From positions 323,501 through 387,500 of the forward strand of contig JAPMOS010000013.1 of assembly GCA_027972325.1 (NCBI GenBank): a stretch of DNA of 64,000 nucleotides. The letters run 5' to 3'. The stretch comes from Paratrimastix pyriformis. Its lineage: Eukaryota > Preaxostyla > Paratrimastigidae. Every line of letters begins with the position of its first letter. Within the stretch, counting starts at the first letter, position 1. Under the pieces are notes generated by a model. That model saw nothing but the letters and a program-made list of their open reading frames with translations. It did not search any database and was not told where the DNA came from. A program made the translations under genes and the position numbers. Positions 34,816 through 63,800 of this stretch are shown piece by piece.

Positions 34816-36027
34816 TTACATGTACAGTGTGAGGTCGGGATTCGCCTCAGCCAGCCCGTCCAGGTCCTCGGCTCTCAGGACACCGCAATCGTACGCGTAC
34901 AGATGGCGCAACGTCCGCCGCCCCTTGCGGGCGATGGCGAGGCAGTGGTGCCCGTGGAGGTGCACCAGCGAGCAGAGGTGCAGCTCGTGGATGGCGGGCA
35001 GGTCCCCGCATGGCACGACCGCGTTGCCGTCGAGGGGGCAGTTCGAGAGGCGGAGCTTCCGGAGGGCGGTCATGGCCGGCAGCAGGAGGGCCAGTTGGGC
35101 GGGGCTGATGGCCGTGCTGTGCAGGTCGAGTTCCCGGAGGCTGGGGCCCAGGTTGGCCATCGTCTCCCAGATGGACCCCTCCAGTTGCGTGCTGGGGGGA
35201 GGTGAGCCGATGGGCGCCGAGGCAGAAGCTGGGACCGCAGACCATCCGTAGAGTAAGAGGGACTCGAGCTGCTGGGTCGCCTCCAGGATCTCCGTCAGCG
35301 CTTCGGTAGACAACTCCGTGCAGTTGGACTGTGAAGGTGGAGGTGGGAGGTGGAGGTGGAGGTGGAGGTGGAGGGGGTCATGTCCGGGGCAGGGCAGACC
35401 AGGTTCAGCGATGTCAGCCCGGTGCATCGGTCGAGCCAGTCCTTGTGGCTGTCATCGATGGGGCAGTTGGCCAGCTTCAGCACGCGGAGCTGTCGCATCC
35501 GGTCCGCGGGGAGGTCCTCGAACACTGCCGGCGTGAACCGGATCCCAGAGATGTCGAGAGAGGTCAGGCTGGTGCACTCGTCCAGAAGGGCCGACAGCCC
35601 CTGGTCGGGGTCGTCCTCGTCCTTGATGCCCGGCACGCACAGCGTCGTGAACTGCGCACCCAACTTCGGCGCGAGAATCTCCAGGAGCGATGAGGGCGAG
35701 CCGAGCGGGAACGTCAAGGCAGTGGCGTTGGGAGACTGATCGAGAACGGAACGAAGGAGGCGCTTCCGCGGGGGCCAGGCATAGAGATTCAGTGCCTTCG
35801 TCACACGCCATGCCACTGGAACGGCTACACAAACATATGCGCTTTGAGGAGTCGGCCAGGGCCAGACCTTCAGCGAAGGCCCGACAGACAAGACGATACC
35901 CGCCAGCAAAAATCTCACCCTGATCGCAAAAAGAAAGAATCACGCTCAACACTTCGATGGGAATGACGGAAAAAAAAGAGGAATCCCCATCGTTCCCAGA
36001 GGAGGACGCGTCGAGCGGCTCGCTCAT
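34816..36027 (-). CDS. F-box and leucine-rich repeat protein
   Basis: 365 residues in three exons (36027-35868, 35824-35400, 35328-34816) with consistent phases. The N-terminus after a short acidic leader reads IPIEVLSVILSFCD...YRLVCRAF, matching the F-box pattern (LPxEVLxxILSFL...LVCRxF). The rest contains several irregular leucine-rich repeats, for example LTSLDISGIRFT, LRVLKLANCPI, LTSLNLSNCTEL, LRELDLHSTAIS and LRKLRLSNCPL, of the cysteine-containing/AMN1-like type. F-box/LRR proteins normally recruit substrates to SCF ubiquitin ligases; that role is inferred from family. The second intron contains a (CACCTC)n-type pyrimidine array. The start ATG lies 2 bp from the tentative ATG of the divergent channel gene. 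Confidence 0.82.
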
Positions 36028-36029
36028 CA
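36028..36029. promoter_or_regulatory. Two-base gap between divergent start codons (F-box/GluR-like)
   Basis: The minus-strand ATG (36025-36027) and the tentative plus-strand ATG (36030-36032) are back to back, so the two transcripts must have overlapping 5' ends or one start is misassigned. Confidence 0.4.
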
Positions 36030-38310
36030 ATGTACCAAATTTATCACGCCCGGTTCGTTTGGCTATATTTCTTTCAAGCCTCTTGTAGGGGTTGTTTGCA
36101 CCGTTTCTGGCACCGATATACCTTTTTTTGGTTACATTATGCCTTTTTCATGCCACGAATGGTGACCACTTACGAGTTGTGACGAAAATTGCCGAACCTT
36201 TTGTGTATAAAGAAAAAGATGTGCTCGCAGGGTTCGCTGTCGATTATTTTAATCAAATACTCCTTGCTCTGGGTTGGACCGCCGAGTGGCACACTGTCGG
36301 GACGCTTTCTGAGCTGTTTGAAGAACTCACCCCAAACGAAAACGGGCAGACTAAAGCCGACATTGCCGGTCTGTACCTCCCAATCTCAGCCTGCTGACGC
36401 TCGATAATTGTAGTTGGTGATTTGACGGTCACATCTTCCCGGGAAAACCAGGTCGACTTCACACATGCATACTATTTCTCTGGGTCTGTCCTCCCTCCCT
36501 TCCGTCGGTGGTTCCGAGACTGTGGGCAATCTGCAGATACGGGATCCTGGTCAAGCGGCAGGCGCCGTTCAGCTTCGTGACAAACTTCTTCCGCAGCACC
36601 CGCATGATGGAGGTTGTGGTGGGCATCGCTTGCCTCCTGGTCTACTCGGCCCTGCTGTCTGTCTCCCACTCCACTCCAGGCCTGGGTTCTGATCTTCGCT
36701 TCCATCTGGGCACAGTGTGTGGGTTTTTGAAGCGCGCCGGACGGGTAGTGACTTCGGGCGGCTCTTCTACCGCGGCATCCTCGACGCCCTCTGGTGGAGC
36801 GTCGTCACCAGTCCGCAAGCTCCTTCCTGCCCCCCCCCCCCCCCCCCCCCCCCCCCACTCCTCCTCCTCCTCCTCCTCCTCCTCCATCTCGATTTCTCCG
36901 GGTCACGTTGACCATTTGGGGGTCTATTTCCGGTCTCCTCCCTGGGCGGTAGCCACCACGGTGGGGTACGGTGACAAGACGCCCAAGTCGTGCGGGGGCC
37001 GGACGGTGGCCGTGGCGTTGATGTTCGCCTCGCTGGTGCTGACGTCGAGTTTCGTGGCCTCCTTCACGGCGGCCGTGCTCGACCAGACGGCCACCATCAC
37101 CGGCCCGGGCGACCTGCCCGGCCTCCGGGTGGGCGTCCAGGCCGAGACCACCGCACGGTCCTACGTCCTCGACCTCAACTGCTCCGTCCGTGCCTCTCAC
37201 CTCCCCTCCCACCCTTGCCCCAACCCGTGATCTAGCGGCGGGCGGGCCGGGGCCGGCCGCTCATCTTTTTCGGCGGCGGGAATCGAACTGAGCCAACCTG
37301 ACCTGTGTCCTGTGTGGGCCTGTTTGGGGCGGGCAGACTGTGGTCACGTACCCGACCGAGGGCGACCTGCTTGGGGGCCTCTGGAGTGGGGCCGTCGACG
37401 TGGTGGTGCACGATGCGGCCCACCTGTCCCACGACGTGCACATCTTCCCGGACCGGTTCCAGGTGACGGGCACATTCAACGTGCGCTACTACGCCCTGGC
37501 CGTCCCCAAGAACACGTCCTCCGTCCGCAGGACCATCGCAAACCAGATGGTCGGCTGCCACCCTCACGAGCACGGCATGACTCACTTGCCCCTGGTCCCC
37601 GTCCCACCGCCACCGCCTGTGTGCAGCTTGTCATGAACGAGTCACCTCAGTACACCCGCCTCTACAATGCCTACTTCACCAGCTCCAACCGCGGTCGGTC
37701 CCCCCAGCCTTCAGGGTGGTGGGGGTGGATGATGAGGGGACGGAGATCGGGGGATGGCGGAGGGACCTGCCTGTGTTTGGGCTGAGCTGACTCTCGTTTT
37801 CTTCTCCGTACAAACCCGGGGCCCGCCCCACCAACGGGACTGCCCGCCACCAGACGCGCGACCCAGCGCCGACACGTACGGCTTCTGGACGGTCCGCCGG
37901 TCACGCGATGCCCACCTCCCGGTCCCCGCTTCCCGTCCACCCCCCGTCCTCTGCGCCTCATCCATCGCCCCCGCCCACCACGTTTCCCTGCCGCCGGGTA
38001 GTTGGTGGGCCTGCTGGGGCTGGCGCTGCTGGTGTGCCTGGTGCTTGGGCTGTGGTCCTACCTGCTCGAGCGGCGCAAGCGGGCCCGGGGCAGCCCCGGC
38101 CTGCCTGGGGACGAGGCCGACGCGAGCAGCCACCTCAAGGCGGCCCTCCTCGAGGCCGAGATGGCCCCCGCCACCCCGCTCTCCCTCGTCGCCGTCACGC
38201 CCACCCTGGCCGGGGCCAACAAGGGGCCCCCCTCGCCCCTCGCCCGCCCGGGGACCTCGCCTGTCCTTGGGCCCGCGGGCGGGGGCCCAGCGGCCGGGTG
38301 GCGGTGCTGA
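36030..38310 (+). CDS. Ionotropic glutamate-receptor-like channel with K+-type selectivity filter
   Basis: Inferred exons 36030-36056 (tentative), 36089-36368, 36414-36483, 36537-36656, 36716-36810, 36953-37185, 37337-37549, 37627-37693, 37854-37891 and 38002-38310 total 483 residues. Order: signal peptide (about 36089-36163); ligand-binding lobe 1, a periplasmic-binding-protein-3 fold, with SREN...DFTHAYY, the region of the ligand-binding Arg; helix M1 VVVGIACLLVYSALLVWVFE; pore loop WWSVVTTTTVGYGDKTP; inner helix VALMFASLVLTSSFVASFTAAVL; lobe 2 (LRVGVQAETTA ... AVDVVVHDAAHL ... ALAVPKNT); a further hydrophobic helix VGLLGLALLVCLVLGLWSYLL; then a basic/Pro tail. The filter is split from the pore helix by an intron holding a poly-C run. 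Start: no in-frame ATG exists in exon 2, so a short first exon with a 32-nt intron is proposed. The tail may instead change frame and extend to 38552 (coiled-coil and poly-Gln). Confidence 0.82.
36831..36857. repeat. Poly-C tract plus (CTC)n in the pore intron of the GluR-like gene
   Basis: About 27 C followed by about eight CTC triplets, starting 20 nt after the donor at 36811. Confidence 0.9.
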
Positions 38311-39018
38311 TGGCGGAGAAGCTCAACCGGATGCAGCGCCAGCTGGACGGGATGGAGGGCCTCCTGCGGGACATCCGCAGGCAGGGATCCGTCGCCACGC
38401 CGCCGCCCCCGGCCCAGCAGCAGCAGCAGCACGCCTTTACCCCGAGCCCGGCCGCCTCTGGGCCGGCCATGTACTTCTCCATCCTGGGGGCCGGCACCAC
38501 CCCCACCCAGAGCGCAGCGGGCAGACCCGGGGCCCTGACGGGGGCCGAATAGAATAACACCACTTCGCTCCCTGCCTCCCTCCCTCTCTCATCCATGACC
38601 CCCATCCTCCCTCCTCTCCTCCTCAAACTGCGACCTCAAACTGCGATGCTGGGTGGTGGTGAGATGGAAGGGCCGCTTTATTGGAGGGGGAGGAGAGGCG
38701 GGGGGGGTGGGGGCGGTAAAAACAAAGGGCGCGGCGTGGTCCCCGGGGCGGAAGCGGAGAGGCAGATACAACAACACAGGCAGCAGGCGGAAGCGGGGCA
38801 ATGCGCTCTCTGCTGGCTGCGGGTGGTCGAGGGGGTGGGGTGGGGTGGGGTGCCCCCAGGCTGCCAAAGCAGCGCATGCTCCAAGCAGAGCGGGGCCGAG
38901 AGGCTTCGTGGGTGTGGAAACAAGCGGGGCGTGGGTGTGAGCAGGGTTGGCGGTGGGTGGGGACGAGGGGGGCTTCCGGAGGGGGCCGCGGCGCGCGGGT
39001 GGGGAGGGGGCGGTGCGC
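38311..39018. other. Convergent 3' region between GluR-like gene and ERGIC-53
   Basis: To 38552 an open frame continues (LNRMQRQLDGMEGLLRDIRR, then poly-Gln) that is one frame off the channel exon; it may be the true C-terminus through an undetected intron or an indel. Beyond 38552 I see only G-rich non-coding sequence. Confidence 0.45.
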
Positions 39019-59362: not shown

Positions 59363-60832
59363 TTAGGGCTGCGAGAGGAGCAAGCCGAGGCGGCGCGGAC
59401 CCTCGTTCTCGCCGGCGTCCTCGGTGTCCGAGGTATGACCCAGCTGGGCCTCGAAGGCGTCGAGGTCTGCCTTGAGCTCGTCTTGCAACTCTTCCTCCAG
59501 GGATCTCTCCCTTGGTTTTCCTAGGAAGAGAAAGATGCTGAGGGAAGATCCGAACTCGGCAAACCCTGCTCTTGTTGCTGGACGGGGGTGCCTGACGATT
59601 GGGGTTGGGCGGGCTGAGTGGGCAATGGAGCGGATGAGGTCGGCTCTTCCCTCGCAACGGGTGTTGCGGGAGCCGCCGGCGAGGCGGCTGTCGCAGGCAT
59701 AGGCGGGGGAGTGGACGCCGTTGGTGGTGTTTGGGGGACGGCAGGAGAAGAGGGGAGAGAGGAAGAAAGGGCCACTCCTTCAATAGTGGTAGCCATGATC
59801 GGAGTGCTGCTGGTGGTGGTGGTAACAGCAGCCGTGGAGGATGCGGGGGTCTGGGAGGAGGATGGGGCCCGGACGAGGTGGCCTCGCCTGGGGGGAGCAA
59901 GATCCGTCAGGATGGGGCTGGGCGCTCTCTGACCCGCCCCCTCGCCGACCGAAGGCGGAGATGGGCTGCTTGTACGGAGAGAACCCATGGGACGGGATTG
60001 CTTGTAGGGCGGAATGGGGACAGAAATGGGTGTGGGCGCCGCCGCACCACCCGAGGGAAGAAAGGGGTTGACAGGGAGCTTAGACTGCGCCCAAGGACTC
60101 TCGGAGTCATCCGCGTCCGAAGGGCGCTGCCATAAGTGCAGAAAAATGAAGAGAGATGAATAATCCAAAAAACAAAAAGCAAACAGCAGACGGGAGGGTC
60201 GAACGAGCTGTGCTGGATCTGAGTGGGATCCAGGTCAGCCAAAGCCCGGGCTTCGTCGGCTAATTGCTCAACACGAGCAAGATAGTTCTTCCAGAAGTTT
60301 TCCTCGCTGACTCTGGGGAGGCAAAAGGAGAAGTGCAGAGCGCAGCGACGGAAAGGCGGACCTGCGCGGGACGAGGAGAAATCTAACCTGGTCCAAGAGT
60401 GGATCAATTTCGAGCATTTTTTTCGCCAAAAGAATGTGGTTACGAGTGGATCCTGGGATCGGTGGGGGGTCGATGAAATTGTGGGGATTCCGAGTGAGAT
60501 TGAGAATGTCTTGTCGGAGTTGAATATGAGCCTCTTTCGAAAGCTTCGAATCGTCCCAAGGCAATTTCATCGAAACTCCACTTTGTGCAGGGCCTAAGCG
60601 AAGTCAGTGACCAAGGAACCAACGAGGAAATGACCTGGAGATGCCCTTTCAAAGTCCTGCTTCTCTTTTTCGAACTCGTTCCGTTCTTCCTCGACAACTT
60701 CCTTGACCTTTTGGATAAGACTCTTGAAAACGGATTTGAACGACAGTCTTGCACGAGGTGCGAAAAAAAAGCGCGGGGGCTGTGTGGTGCGAGATGATGC
60801 TCCGCCCCCTTTGGTGAAGCAGGCTCAGTTCC
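59363..60832 (-). CDS. BSD-domain protein (BSDC1/SYAP1-like)
   Basis: Exons resolved: ...-60635, 60593-60362, 60312-60192, 60126-59565, 59520-59363, all phase-consistent; the first exon is uncertain (an ATG lies at 60832, and coding is clear only from about 60757). An N-terminal helix KEVVEEERNEFEKEKQDFE leads to VSMKLPWDD, then the BSD domain: PHNFIDPP, LAKKMLEIDPLLDQVRFLLVP, and RVSEENFWKNYLARVEQL, with the invariant Phe-Trp pair. A long Pro/Ser/Thr-rich linker and an acidic tail (LEEELQDELKADLDAFEAQLG) follow. BSD proteins of this type are associated with membrane trafficking or TFIIH-like contexts; the specific role is unknown. It lies head-to-head with the Ca2+-channel gene. Confidence 0.82.
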
Positions 60833-60878
60833 ATCTTTGGCCCGATTGGGCCGACGCCCTCAGCCCTGTTCCTGCGGA
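60833..60878. promoter_or_regulatory. 46-bp gap between divergent BSD and channel start codons
   Basis: The candidate ATG at 60832 (-) and the chosen ATG at 60879 (+) face away from each other. The plus-strand frame is open further upstream, so the start there is the first ATG only. Confidence 0.4.
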
Positions 60879-63800
60879 ATGTTGGTTGACACAAGGCGAT
60901 CAGAGGAGACTGACGCCAATGCTGTCCAAGAATCTGAAATGACTCCAGTCTCTGTTTTTCACTCAACCGATGCTGGCATTTCCCCCGTGGCAGAGGCGTT
61001 TTTTTCGCCACCTGGTGTTGTCCCTATCAATCCCACCGGAGCACGCGAAATTGAGATGGAGGAAGCACAAAAAAAGGCTCGCGATCTGGTCACGTCGCTC
61101 CATTCCCTTGCCAGCACCGTGCATCTTGTTCAAAGAACCCGGACACGCGTGAGGGTCAGGACCGACCCACCCACGCCCAGCGGAAGCACCCAAACCAACG
61201 CGCCTTCGGCCGCCGGGCCTTCTGTTCCCCCCACTCCAAGCCCCTCGGTCACGGCCCTCTCCCAAAGCAGCACCGCCGGTCGCCCCTCGGCCACCCAGGG
61301 CGGGCGCCGCCCGGCCAAGCGGGTCGACAAGTCCCTGGGGATCTTCGGACCCGACCACGCCATCCGAAAGGGTTGCGTGTACCTGTCGAAGGCCCGCTGG
61401 TTCGGGGTGGTTGTGGTGGTGGTGACCCTGGCCAACTGCGTGACCCTGGCCATGAACAACCCCCTGCTGCCCGCCGAGACGGGCCTCAACCAGATCCTCA
61501 ACATGGTCGAGACGGGTTTCACCATCTTCTTTGCGGCCGAGATGGGCATCAAGGTCCGCCGCCGCGGCTCGCCCCCATCCCGCCCCCATCCCGCCCCCCC
61601 ATCCCGTCCCCCGACCGATCTCGCCAACGCGCGCGTTCCCGGGCCTGGACAGGTCATTGCGGTGGGCCTCTTCCTGGAGCCCCATTCGTACCTGCACTCG
61701 GGCTGGAACTGGCTCGATGCCTTCGTGGTGATCTCGGGGCTGATCTCGCTCTTCATCGGTCCGCCCCCGCAGCCCCACGGCCCAAGGGCGCCTCCTCGTC
61801 TGCCCGGCGCTGATGTGTCGGCTCGCTCTGGGCATCTGGGTTGGAATGCACCCCCTCCACCCCCCTTCCCTCCACCCCGCGCAGGTAACGACAGCGGGGC
61901 CATCACCGCCCTGCGGGCCCTGCGGCTGCTGCGGCCCCTGCGTGCGATGCACCTCGTGCCGGGGCTGCACCACCTGCTGAACTGCTTCTTCCGGACGCTG
62001 CCCATGGTGGGCAACGTCTTCTTCATGGCGGCCCTCTTCGTGCTCCTCTTCGCGGTCGTCGGCAACCGGCTCTTCGCGGGCGTCTTCAGGAACCGCTGCG
62101 CTGACGCGGCCACGGGGCTGGTGGCCTGGGACTACCCGTCCCTGTGCAGGTCGGGGCCTCCCCCTCCCCCGCCCCCCGTCCATCCTCACGCCTCCCCTCT
62201 CCCCTTCGTCCCATGCGCCGCTCCTCCCGGCAGCACGTCACCCACCGTTGGCACCCAATGCCCCGACGGTCTGTCTGCCACCCTCCTGCCCCCCCCCCCC
62301 CCCTCCCTCCCTCCCCTCCCCCGCCATGCCGCGACTGGCTCGGGACCGCGACGGCGCCATGTCACCCATCGGCCCTTCTACCTGTGCCTCTGGGATCCCT
62401 GTGTGCGGGGGGCGGGGCAGGGCTGGTCTGCGTCGAGACGGCCTACAACCCGTACTTCGGCACGGTGGGCTTCGACAACGTGGGGCTGGCCCTGCTGACC
62501 GTCTTCCAGTGCATGACCGGCGAAGGGTCCGCCCCCCGCATGCCCCCGCCCACCCGCCCGCCCTCCCCCAGCCAGCCGGCCCCCCGCCTGACTGGGCCCC
62601 GTCGGGGTGATGATGGCGGGGCAGCTGGACGGACGTCATGTGGAAGGCCATGGAGGCCACCAGCCCCGCGGCGGCGGTGTACTTCGTGCTGCTCATCTTC
62701 ATGCTCAACTTCGTCATGATCAACCTCGTCGTCGCTGTCATGGGCGCCCGCTTCACCGAGGTCCGTTTCAGCGGATTTTTTTGCACCTCCCATAATATTT
62801 TCCTTGGCATGGCGACATGATCTGCCTCGAGCGGACATGGGTTTCTTGTTGAGATATTTTTTTTGTCGGGAAAATCAAGTTCAGATGTCGAGGTCCGTTG
62901 CGCCTCCTTTTGAGCCGCAATTTCCCCAGAGACCCCTCTGGGCTCGCGATTGGGCGCTCATGTCTGCGTCGGAGCTTCCGCTGCTGAGTCTGAGGATAGA
63001 GTTTTTGGTGAGAAGCCCACTTTTGAGTGAGTTCTTTTTGGTGATGAGGTGAAAAAAAACGATTGTTCGGACGCCGCGGACAGTCACCTTTGGCTGCATC
63101 CTCGCTCAGGTCTCGCGGGCGCCTGCCCCTCCCGAGGCCGAGCCCAGCGCCCTGGGCCCGAACCCGTCGGCCCCGGCCAGCCCCAGCCCCGAGGCCGACT
63201 GGGCCGCCCACAGGACGCCCACGGCCATCCCCGACCAAAGTGAGGGGGCGAGCGAGCCCGCACGGCCCCCCTCCACCATGCCCTCGCTGCCCCCGACCCT
63301 GGACAGCGAGCCCCTGGGCGGCCCCGAGGCCCCCGACGAGGCGGCGTCCCCGCCCCCGCCCCCGCCCGCCGCCGCGGGGGTGGAGGAGTTCGCAGTCCCG
63401 GGCGGCACCTTCCCCTCGCCGGCGCCCTCGTCCGACGCCGTCCCGCACCCGTCGGCCCTGATCCCCCGGGAGGATGCGGCCCCGCACCCGAGCAGGCCCC
63501 CCAGCCCGCTCTCGTCCATCGACCGGGACTCGGTCCGGACCATGTCGGTCTCCTCGGTCAACACCGCCGCCACGGCCGGGTCGGGGCCCTCCGTCCAGAT
63601 GCGGCCTCCGGGCTGCCTGGTGGCCCTCCGGCGCGCCTGGGGCCGTTGCCGCCACGCCTGGCGGGCGCGGGCCCGGCGGCGGCCCCGGTCGCGGGTGCGG
63701 CAGGCCATCTTCCGGATGGTGCAGCACTCGCTCTTCGGGGAGGCCGTCCTGCTGGTAGTCGTGGCCAACAGCGTCTTCCTGGCCCTGCAGTACTACGGCA

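What the first reader, a model, noticed from the sequence alone, without database searches (positions are those of the whole stretch)
36030..38552. Eukaryotic glutamate-receptor-like channel with a potassium selectivity filter and a third membrane helix
Sequence: signal peptide, binding lobe 1, M1, pore loop ending TVGYGDKTP, inner helix, binding lobe 2, then a further hydrophobic helix and a basic tail. Established: TVGYG-type filters in a glutamate-binding channel are known from the prokaryotic GluR0 class, which has two helices plus a pore loop; animal and plant iGluRs have a different pore and an M4 helix. This protein combines a K+-type filter with an M4-like helix inside an intron-containing nuclear gene, so it could be an intermediate form or a re-engineered prokaryotic acquisition. 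The intron position inside the pore loop argues against contamination.
Basis: partly seen in the sequence, partly recalled or inferred. Interest (0 to 1): 0.87.

Follow-up and report, generated by a model that had tools for sequence, protein, structure and literature searches.

The report
Protist glutamate-gated channel with potassium filter
A eukaryotic microbe carries one intron-containing gene for a bacterial-style amino-acid-gated channel with a potassium-channel pore and an extra membrane helix, a combination known to me otherwise only from a rotifer.

Summary
Nine core exons on the + strand (36089-38310), joined by eight GT-AG introns whose donors are all GTCNGY, encode a signal-like leader, lobe 1, M1, pore loop TTTTVGYGD, inner helix, lobe 2, then a third hydrophobic helix and a basic tail. 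The pore intron is exactly 36811-36952. The protein is of the GluR0 class: 184 bits and 35% identity to a bacterial K+-filter GluR0, 31 of 34 highly conserved bacterial columns kept; the best eukaryotic receptor in the PDB gives 54.9 bits by another program. In 53 of 54 bacterial K+-filter relatives the chain stops right after lobe 2; the 54th is cut by the end of the fetched locus. So the last helix is an addition relative to these bacteria. Genome searches found one such gene, in a 56-Mb, probably non-opisthokont genome, beside eukaryotic genes. The combination is not unprecedented: reviews describe the rotifer AvGluR1 with a K+-type filter and a fourth segment. New here are the lineage and the strongly GluR0-like core. 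Ancient intermediate or bacterial acquisition with an independently gained helix: unresolved. Homology of the helix to M4 is not shown. No transcript data; first Met and C-terminus are uncertain.

The parts
36030..36056 (+). possible first exon (MYQIYHARF), start of signal peptide; unproven
   Evidence: keeps the frame into 36089 over a 32-nt GT-AG intron; donor GTTTGG off-consensus; an upstream exon is a rival
36089..36368 (+). exon: hydrophobic leader and most of binding lobe 1
36414..36483 (+). exon: lobe 1 with the conserved ligand arginine (LTVTSSREN) and DFTHAYYFSG
36537..36656 (+). exon: end of lobe 1 and first part of M1
36716..36810 (+). exon: end of M1 (VWVFE), linker and pore helix (GILDALWWSVVT)
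36811..36952 (+). intron inside the pore loop, donor GTCCGC, acceptor GGTAG, with a poly-C tract
36955..36975 (+). K+-type selectivity filter TTVGYGD
   Evidence: sequence; alignment with bacterial GluR0
36953..37185 (+). exon: filter, inner helix, start of lobe 2 (DLPGLRVGV)
37337..37549 (+). exon: lobe 2 with the conserved aspartate (VVVHDAAH)
37627..37693 (+). exon: end of lobe 2 (NESPQYTRLYNAYF)
37854..37891 (+). short exon: lobe 2 to last-helix linker (DARPSADTYGFWT)
   Evidence: frame and donor motif only
38002..38310 (+). exon: last (M4-like) helix LVGLLGLALLVCLVLGLWSYLLE, basic RRKRAR and low-complexity tail to TGA
38311..38552 (+). further coding-like frame (VAVLMAEKLNRMQRQLDGMEGLL...) that may be the true C-terminus; junction unresolved
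   Evidence: GC3 0.92; GT-AG joins possible but only with off-consensus donors

Best explanation
It is a nuclear gene, single-copy as far as the searches reach, for a GluR0-class ionotropic receptor of a probably non-opisthokont microbial eukaryote. Four subunits would form an inverted K+-channel pore under extracellular two-lobed amino-acid-binding domains. An amino acid binds between the lobes (ligand arginine in TSSREN, aspartate in VHD), the clamshell closes, pulls on the inner helices and opens a pore with a TTVGYGD filter, letting K+ through and most likely hyperpolarising the cell. The added third helix runs alongside the pore and, unlike GluR0, puts a basic C-terminus into the cytosol. 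Shown here: gene structure by sequence, domain order, filter, conserved pocket residues, the helix and its absence in the bacterial relatives. Inferred: tetramer, ligand, gating, K+ selectivity, role in signalling or ion balance.
For: Model with 8 consistent introns and coding-like codon position 3 in exons 3-9; Pfam order SBP_bac_3 / Ion_trans_2 / Lig_chan; tblastn matches in 54 of 54 bacterial K+-filter GluR0 ORFs, 79 to 184 bits, E 2e-17 to 7e-53 in a small database of 88 loci; 31 of 34 columns that are at least 90% conserved in 48 bacterial rows are kept; a profile of those rows scores it 278.6 bits against 148.8 for the printed stretch of plant GLR3.4; its ligand domain is nearest in the PDB to the Nostoc GluR0 ligand core, 2.4e-13; a model of the closest bacterial relative (mean pLDDT 87.5, pTM 0.68) matches that GluR0 core and AMPA receptors; no second receptor gene found; contig of 769,527 bases with VPS13-like and L-type lectin genes on either side; EF1A without the 12-residue insertion of the mammalian protein. 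GluR0 of Synechocystis is a K+ channel with inverted topology (PMC13099474, abstract and discussion read).
Against: No transcript. Boundaries chosen by hand. Start and C-terminus unresolved. 3 of 34 conserved columns differ, and the inner helix to lobe 2 spacing is two residues shorter than in most bacterial rows (GYGD to DL: 49 against 51). Two bacterial relatives that have lost the filter (L006, L008) score higher on the GluR0 profile than this protein does. A K+ signature does not prove K+ selectivity: one review says AvGluR1 is permeable to Na+ (PMC3483616 passage) while others call it K+-selective. No ligand test.
Confidence: 0.75

Rival explanations
1. Bacterial acquisition: a K+-filter GluR0 gene was taken up from bacteria, gained introns, and gained its last helix on its own; it is unrelated to the origin of animal and plant iGluRs.
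For: Closer to bacterial GluR0 than GLR3.4 is, and low scores to GLR3.4 and AMPA receptors; the last helix has no significant similarity to iGluR M4; no second receptor gene found.
Against: Not nested in any bacterial group, long branch; eight introns and high codon position 3 GC in most exons mean that it is not recent.
Confidence: 0.4
2. Ancient eukaryotic form: a relict of the K+-filter receptor with three helices from which animal and plant receptors (and AvGluR1) descend.
For: Topology as reviews give it for AvGluR1 and iGluRs; deep, unnested position.
Against: No eukaryotic genome collection to test it; the AvGluR1 ligand domain is only a weak match (E 2.6e-4 against 2.4e-13 for Nostoc GluR0); M4 homology not shown.
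Confidence: 0.25
3. Gene-model error: the last helix belongs to a separate small gene or an unspliced piece, and the channel is an ordinary two-helix GluR0.
For: The linker exon of 38 nt rests on frame and motif only; the C-terminal frame is unresolved.
Against: Donor, acceptor and phase fit; GC3 0.96 in 38002-38157.
Confidence: 0.12
4. Bacterial contamination or chimeric contig.
For: Bacterial-like protein.
Against: Introns with the host's donor type inside the gene; eukaryotic-type neighbours within 5 kb on both sides; 769-kb contig.
Confidence: 0.02

Closest known systems
Prokaryotic GluR0 (Synechocystis) and the K+-filter 'Group 1' receptors of Ger et al. 2010 (PMC2950845, passages)
   Same: Lobe 1 - M1 - K+ pore loop - inner helix - lobe 2, TVGYGD filter, shared pocket residues; 33-35% identity to the 12 closest of 48 bacterial rows
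   Different: Here eukaryotic, intron-bearing, with a further membrane helix and predicted cytosolic tail; 53 of 54 bacterial ORFs stop 163-179 residues after the start of GYGD, the 54th is cut by the locus end
AvGluR1 of the rotifer Adineta vaga (Janovjak 2011; paper not held, known through passages of reviews)
   Same: Eukaryotic receptor with a K+ signature filter and a fourth (M4) segment
Plant GLR and animal iGluR (GLR3.4 7lzh, GluA2)
   Same: Binding lobes, inverted pore, last helix after lobe 2 (topology)
   Different: Different pore sequence; an amino-terminal domain there (known, not searched) and none in this model; lower similarity

Membership tests
K+-filter GluR0 (prokaryotic glutamate receptor) | Two ligand-binding lobes split by the pore domain | tested here: met
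   Pfam SBP_bac_3 match spans 29-355 around Ion_trans_2 177-230
K+-filter GluR0 (prokaryotic glutamate receptor) | TVGYGD filter | tested here: met
   36955-36975; aligned with 48 bacterial rows
K+-filter GluR0 (prokaryotic glutamate receptor) | Overall homology to GluR0 proteins | tested here: met
   tblastn up to 184 bits; profile 278.6 bits
K+-filter GluR0 (prokaryotic glutamate receptor) | Only two membrane helices, chain ends after lobe 2 | tested here: not met
   Third hydrophobic helix, mean hydropathy 2.54. So it is of the GluR0 class but not a plain GluR0
AvGluR1-type eukaryotic K+-signature receptor | K+ signature plus a last helix in one protein | tested here: met
   definition from reviews
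AvGluR1-type eukaryotic K+-signature receptor | Shared descent with AvGluR1 | tested here: inconclusive
   Only the AvGluR1 ligand domain appeared among PDB matches; weak match 2.6e-4
Eukaryotic iGluR/GLR | Amino-terminal domain | tested here: not met
   Only a signal-like sequence precedes lobe 1 in the model; the first exon is unsettled
Eukaryotic iGluR/GLR | M4 homologous to iGluR M4 | tested here: inconclusive
   Best PDB matches are integrin helices at E 0.09; GluA2 at 1.2
Ligand-gated K+ channel | Amino-acid-gated, K+-selective current | not testable with these tools
   needs electrophysiology

The most novel reading that the evidence does not exclude
Outside the opisthokonts, a GluR0-lineage K+ channel gained an M4-like helix and a cytosolic tail independently of animal and plant receptors, so the three-helix receptor layout arose more than once; with AvGluR1 this would make K+-filter, M4-bearing receptors a scattered but recurrent eukaryotic form.
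Probability: 0.3. Interest if true: 0.75.

Novelty: new variant of a known kind. Interest (0 to 1): 0.52.

Why it matters
The origin of glutamate receptors is usually drawn as K+ channel plus binding protein, then M4, then loss of K+ selectivity. A natural protein with an almost bacterial GluR0 core and a last helix, outside animals and plants, would let the M4 step be tested apart from the filter step, and would show that K+-filter receptors are not confined to bacteria and one rotifer.

Tried and rejected
Single-exon reading: rejected, the blocks lie in different frames with stops between. The search for related loci with the spliced protein found no confirmed relative in genome contigs (68 stretches) or viral contigs (5 stretches). 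Plasmid tblastn found 10 records; 7 were fetched (not fetched: a twin of one of them and two matches of the pore only), and these 7 lack the K+ filter. Phage tblastn gave 2 records, pore only. A spacing pattern (GYGD...DL[PA]G) then gave 83 stretches of genome contigs and 5 viral ones. Of these 88 loci 34 were dropped because they lack T[VF]GYGD, the 5 viral ones among them, and 6 of the 54 K+-filter ORFs were left out of the alignment as truncated. C-terminus: an earlier test of mine gave 0 joins from the helix exon to the ORF ending at 38552, but 61 counted the terminal stop as a break and 62 looked at too narrow a range; one search replaces both (50 frame-compatible joins, 0 with a GTYNGY donor). 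rRNA search to name the organism failed: covariance search unavailable; a conserved 18S word occurs twice in the genome, and the one place examined is not recognised as rRNA by Rfam. The weak second genome hit L005 (E 0.21) was not pursued. The F-box reading of the neighbouring minus-strand ORF is by eye; Pfam gave nothing for it up to E 0.1.

Full report
What is there. The stretch 36030-38552 is a plus-strand gene in pieces. Joining nine blocks by eight GT-AG introns gives one open frame of 474 residues: a hydrophobic leader, lobe 1, M1, pore helix GILDALWWSVVT, filter TTTTVGYGD, inner helix, lobe 2 ending NESPQYTRLYNAYF, a short linker, a hydrophobic helix and RRKRAR.

Is it real. All eight donors are GTCNGY. 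In 36000-38560 there are 140 GT dinucleotides and 10 GTCNGY, 8 of which are these donors. I chose the boundaries knowing both homology and motif, so this is support and not a blind test. The motif type recurs in the genome: EF2 introns start GTTTGT and GTCTGT, an EF1A intron starts GTCTGT, and GTCNGY occurs 445 times in the window against 325.8 +- 16.9 in 100 shuffles. GC at codon position 3 is 0.82-0.96 in exons 3-9; exons 1-2 are AT-richer (0.46, 0.55) and show no such signal. The last-helix part has 0.96. The helix scores 2.54 in mean hydropathy, like M1 (2.65); 18 separate segments of the six-frame translation of 64 kb (99,317 windows) reach 2.4, some of them repeats.

Unsettled ends. The leader frame has no ATG of its own. 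ATG 36030 with a 32-nt intron (36057-36088, donor GTTTGG) would give a good signal peptide, but the donor is off-consensus; an upstream exon from 35957 or 35963 with donor GTTCGT at 36053 also keeps the frame. The frame with the last helix stops at 38308-38310; the next frame, to 38552, looks coding (GC3 0.92). Fifty GT-AG joins keep the frame into it, none with a GTYNGY donor; a 56-nt intron 38263-38318 is one.

Where it sits. The window lies in a 769,527-base contig of a 56.06-Mb, 495-contig genome. Neighbours are a VPS13-like gene (PF12624, E 9.6e-19, below Pfam's cut-off) and an L-type lectin (PF03388, 1.6e-34). EF1A lacks the 12-residue insertion seen in the mammalian protein, which, from recall, marks opisthokonts; so the organism is probably neither animal nor fungus. 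It could not be named. Searches with SBP_bac_3, Lig_chan and the pore exon found this receptor gene and nothing else below E 0.2; such exon-by-exon searches can miss diverged copies.

Relatives. Pfam finds SBP_bac_3 (1.6e-18), Ion_trans_2 (6.9e-12), Lig_chan-Glu_bd (7.2e-10) and Lig_chan (2.7e-7). In the PDB the best full match is plant GLR3.4 at 6.2e-14, 54.9 bits; with the lobes alone it is the Nostoc GluR0 ligand core at 2.4e-13, with AvGluR1 at 2.6e-4. Among plasmids the best matches are 5e-18. A DNA pattern for GYGD followed at limited spacing by DL[PA]G drew 83 stretches of bacterial and archaeal genomes and 5 viral ones; 54 of the 88 hold a T[VF]GYGD receptor ORF, each matching the window protein by tblastn, best 184 bits at 35% identity (E 7e-53, in a database of these 88 loci only). 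In 53 of 54 the chain ends 163-179 residues after the start of GYGD, that is at the end of lobe 2; one is cut by the end of the locus. So none of the 53 has a helix after lobe 2. Of 34 columns at least 90% conserved in 48 full rows, the window keeps 31; the ligand arginine and the lobe-2 aspartate are shared too. A profile of those rows gives it 278.6 bits and the printed stretch of GLR3.4 148.8; the seven filter-less plasmid relatives score 239 to 383, two of them above the window protein.

Fold. It matches the Nostoc GluR0 core (E 4.2e-25) and AMPA receptors. This supports the layout of the class, not of the added helix.

Descent. A tree of 57 rows puts the window among the bacterial K+-filter receptors rather than with GLR3.4 and 5 of the 7 filter-less plasmid relatives (split 89/90, not starred). 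Its own branch is long (2.16), no starred set holds it, and its letter make-up departs from the rest. GLR3.4, a partial stretch, is the only eukaryotic row besides it. So: GluR0 class, yes; donor or age, unknown. The last helix has no significant similarity to iGluR M4 (GluA2 E 1.2; integrin helices 0.09).

How it likely works. By analogy with GluR0, a K+ channel of inverted topology that acts in cell volume under KCl stress (PMC13099474), an external amino acid closes the lobes and opens a K+ pore. The added helix would place the basic C-terminus inside the cell. Ligand, selectivity and role are inferred. A K+ signature is not proof: reviews disagree on AvGluR1, K+-selective in PMC11479355 and PMC12226733, permeable to Na+ in PMC3483616.

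What is known. Ger et al. 2010 (PMC2950845, passages) describe prokaryotic Group 1 with a K+-like filter. PMC12332018 and PMC11479355 describe AvGluR1 as a eukaryotic receptor with that filter and the modern architecture. In my searches of an open-licence library I saw no other eukaryotic case; I saw listings with the starts of abstracts, and passages of seven of the listed papers (the GluR0 paper). Subscription papers are mostly missing there, and the two primary AvGluR1 papers were not held. A survey of diatoms reports GLRs in diatoms and brown algae; the passages that I read say nothing of a K+ filter (PMC11085791).

Verdict. A real and well-supported find, a new variant of a known kind: GluR0 core, eukaryotic gene, extra helix.

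Noticed in passing
L055:2670-4841:-, L063:582-2738:+, L070:338-2443:+, L085:2963-5179:+: Bacterial K+-filter GluR0 proteins with an N-terminal OpuAC (glycine-betaine-binding) domain ahead of the receptor, like an amino-terminal domain: 4 of 4 long ORFs tested by Pfam; 8 of 54 K+-filter ORFs have more than 450 residues before the pore (stop-to-stop lengths, 4 of the 8 not tested). Suggests betaine- or osmolyte-sensing glutamate-receptor channels in cyanobacteria and actinobacteria; one paper search for four of five related terms found none, and the two words betaine and OpuAC do not occur in Ger et al. 2010.
   Followed up: partly
window, both strands; L016; L017: The splice donor of this genome looks like GTYNGY (mostly GTCNGY) and not GTRAGT: 445 GTCNGY in the window against 325.8 expected, and three EF2 and EF1A introns agree.
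   Followed up: partly
L007, L008, L009, L010, L011, L012: Alphaproteobacterial plasmids carry GluR0-like proteins that align over both lobes and the pore region but lack the K+ filter.
   Followed up: no
35452-36147 (-): Minus-strand ORF whose first ATG (36025-36027) lies 2 bases from ATG 36030 of the channel gene; F-box/leucine-rich by eye, no Pfam match. Overlapping 5' ends or a wrong start for one of the two.
   Followed up: partly
36000-38310: Sharp rise in G+C along the gene: exons 1-2 47% G+C, exons 5-9 55-78%.
   Followed up: no
L017: EF1A has about 8 extra residues near NQDPKTGENKPFLGAR compared with the mammalian protein and lacks its 12-residue insertion.
   Followed up: no
60798-62498 (+): ORF that looks by eye like part of a voltage-gated cation channel; not searched.
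   Followed up: no
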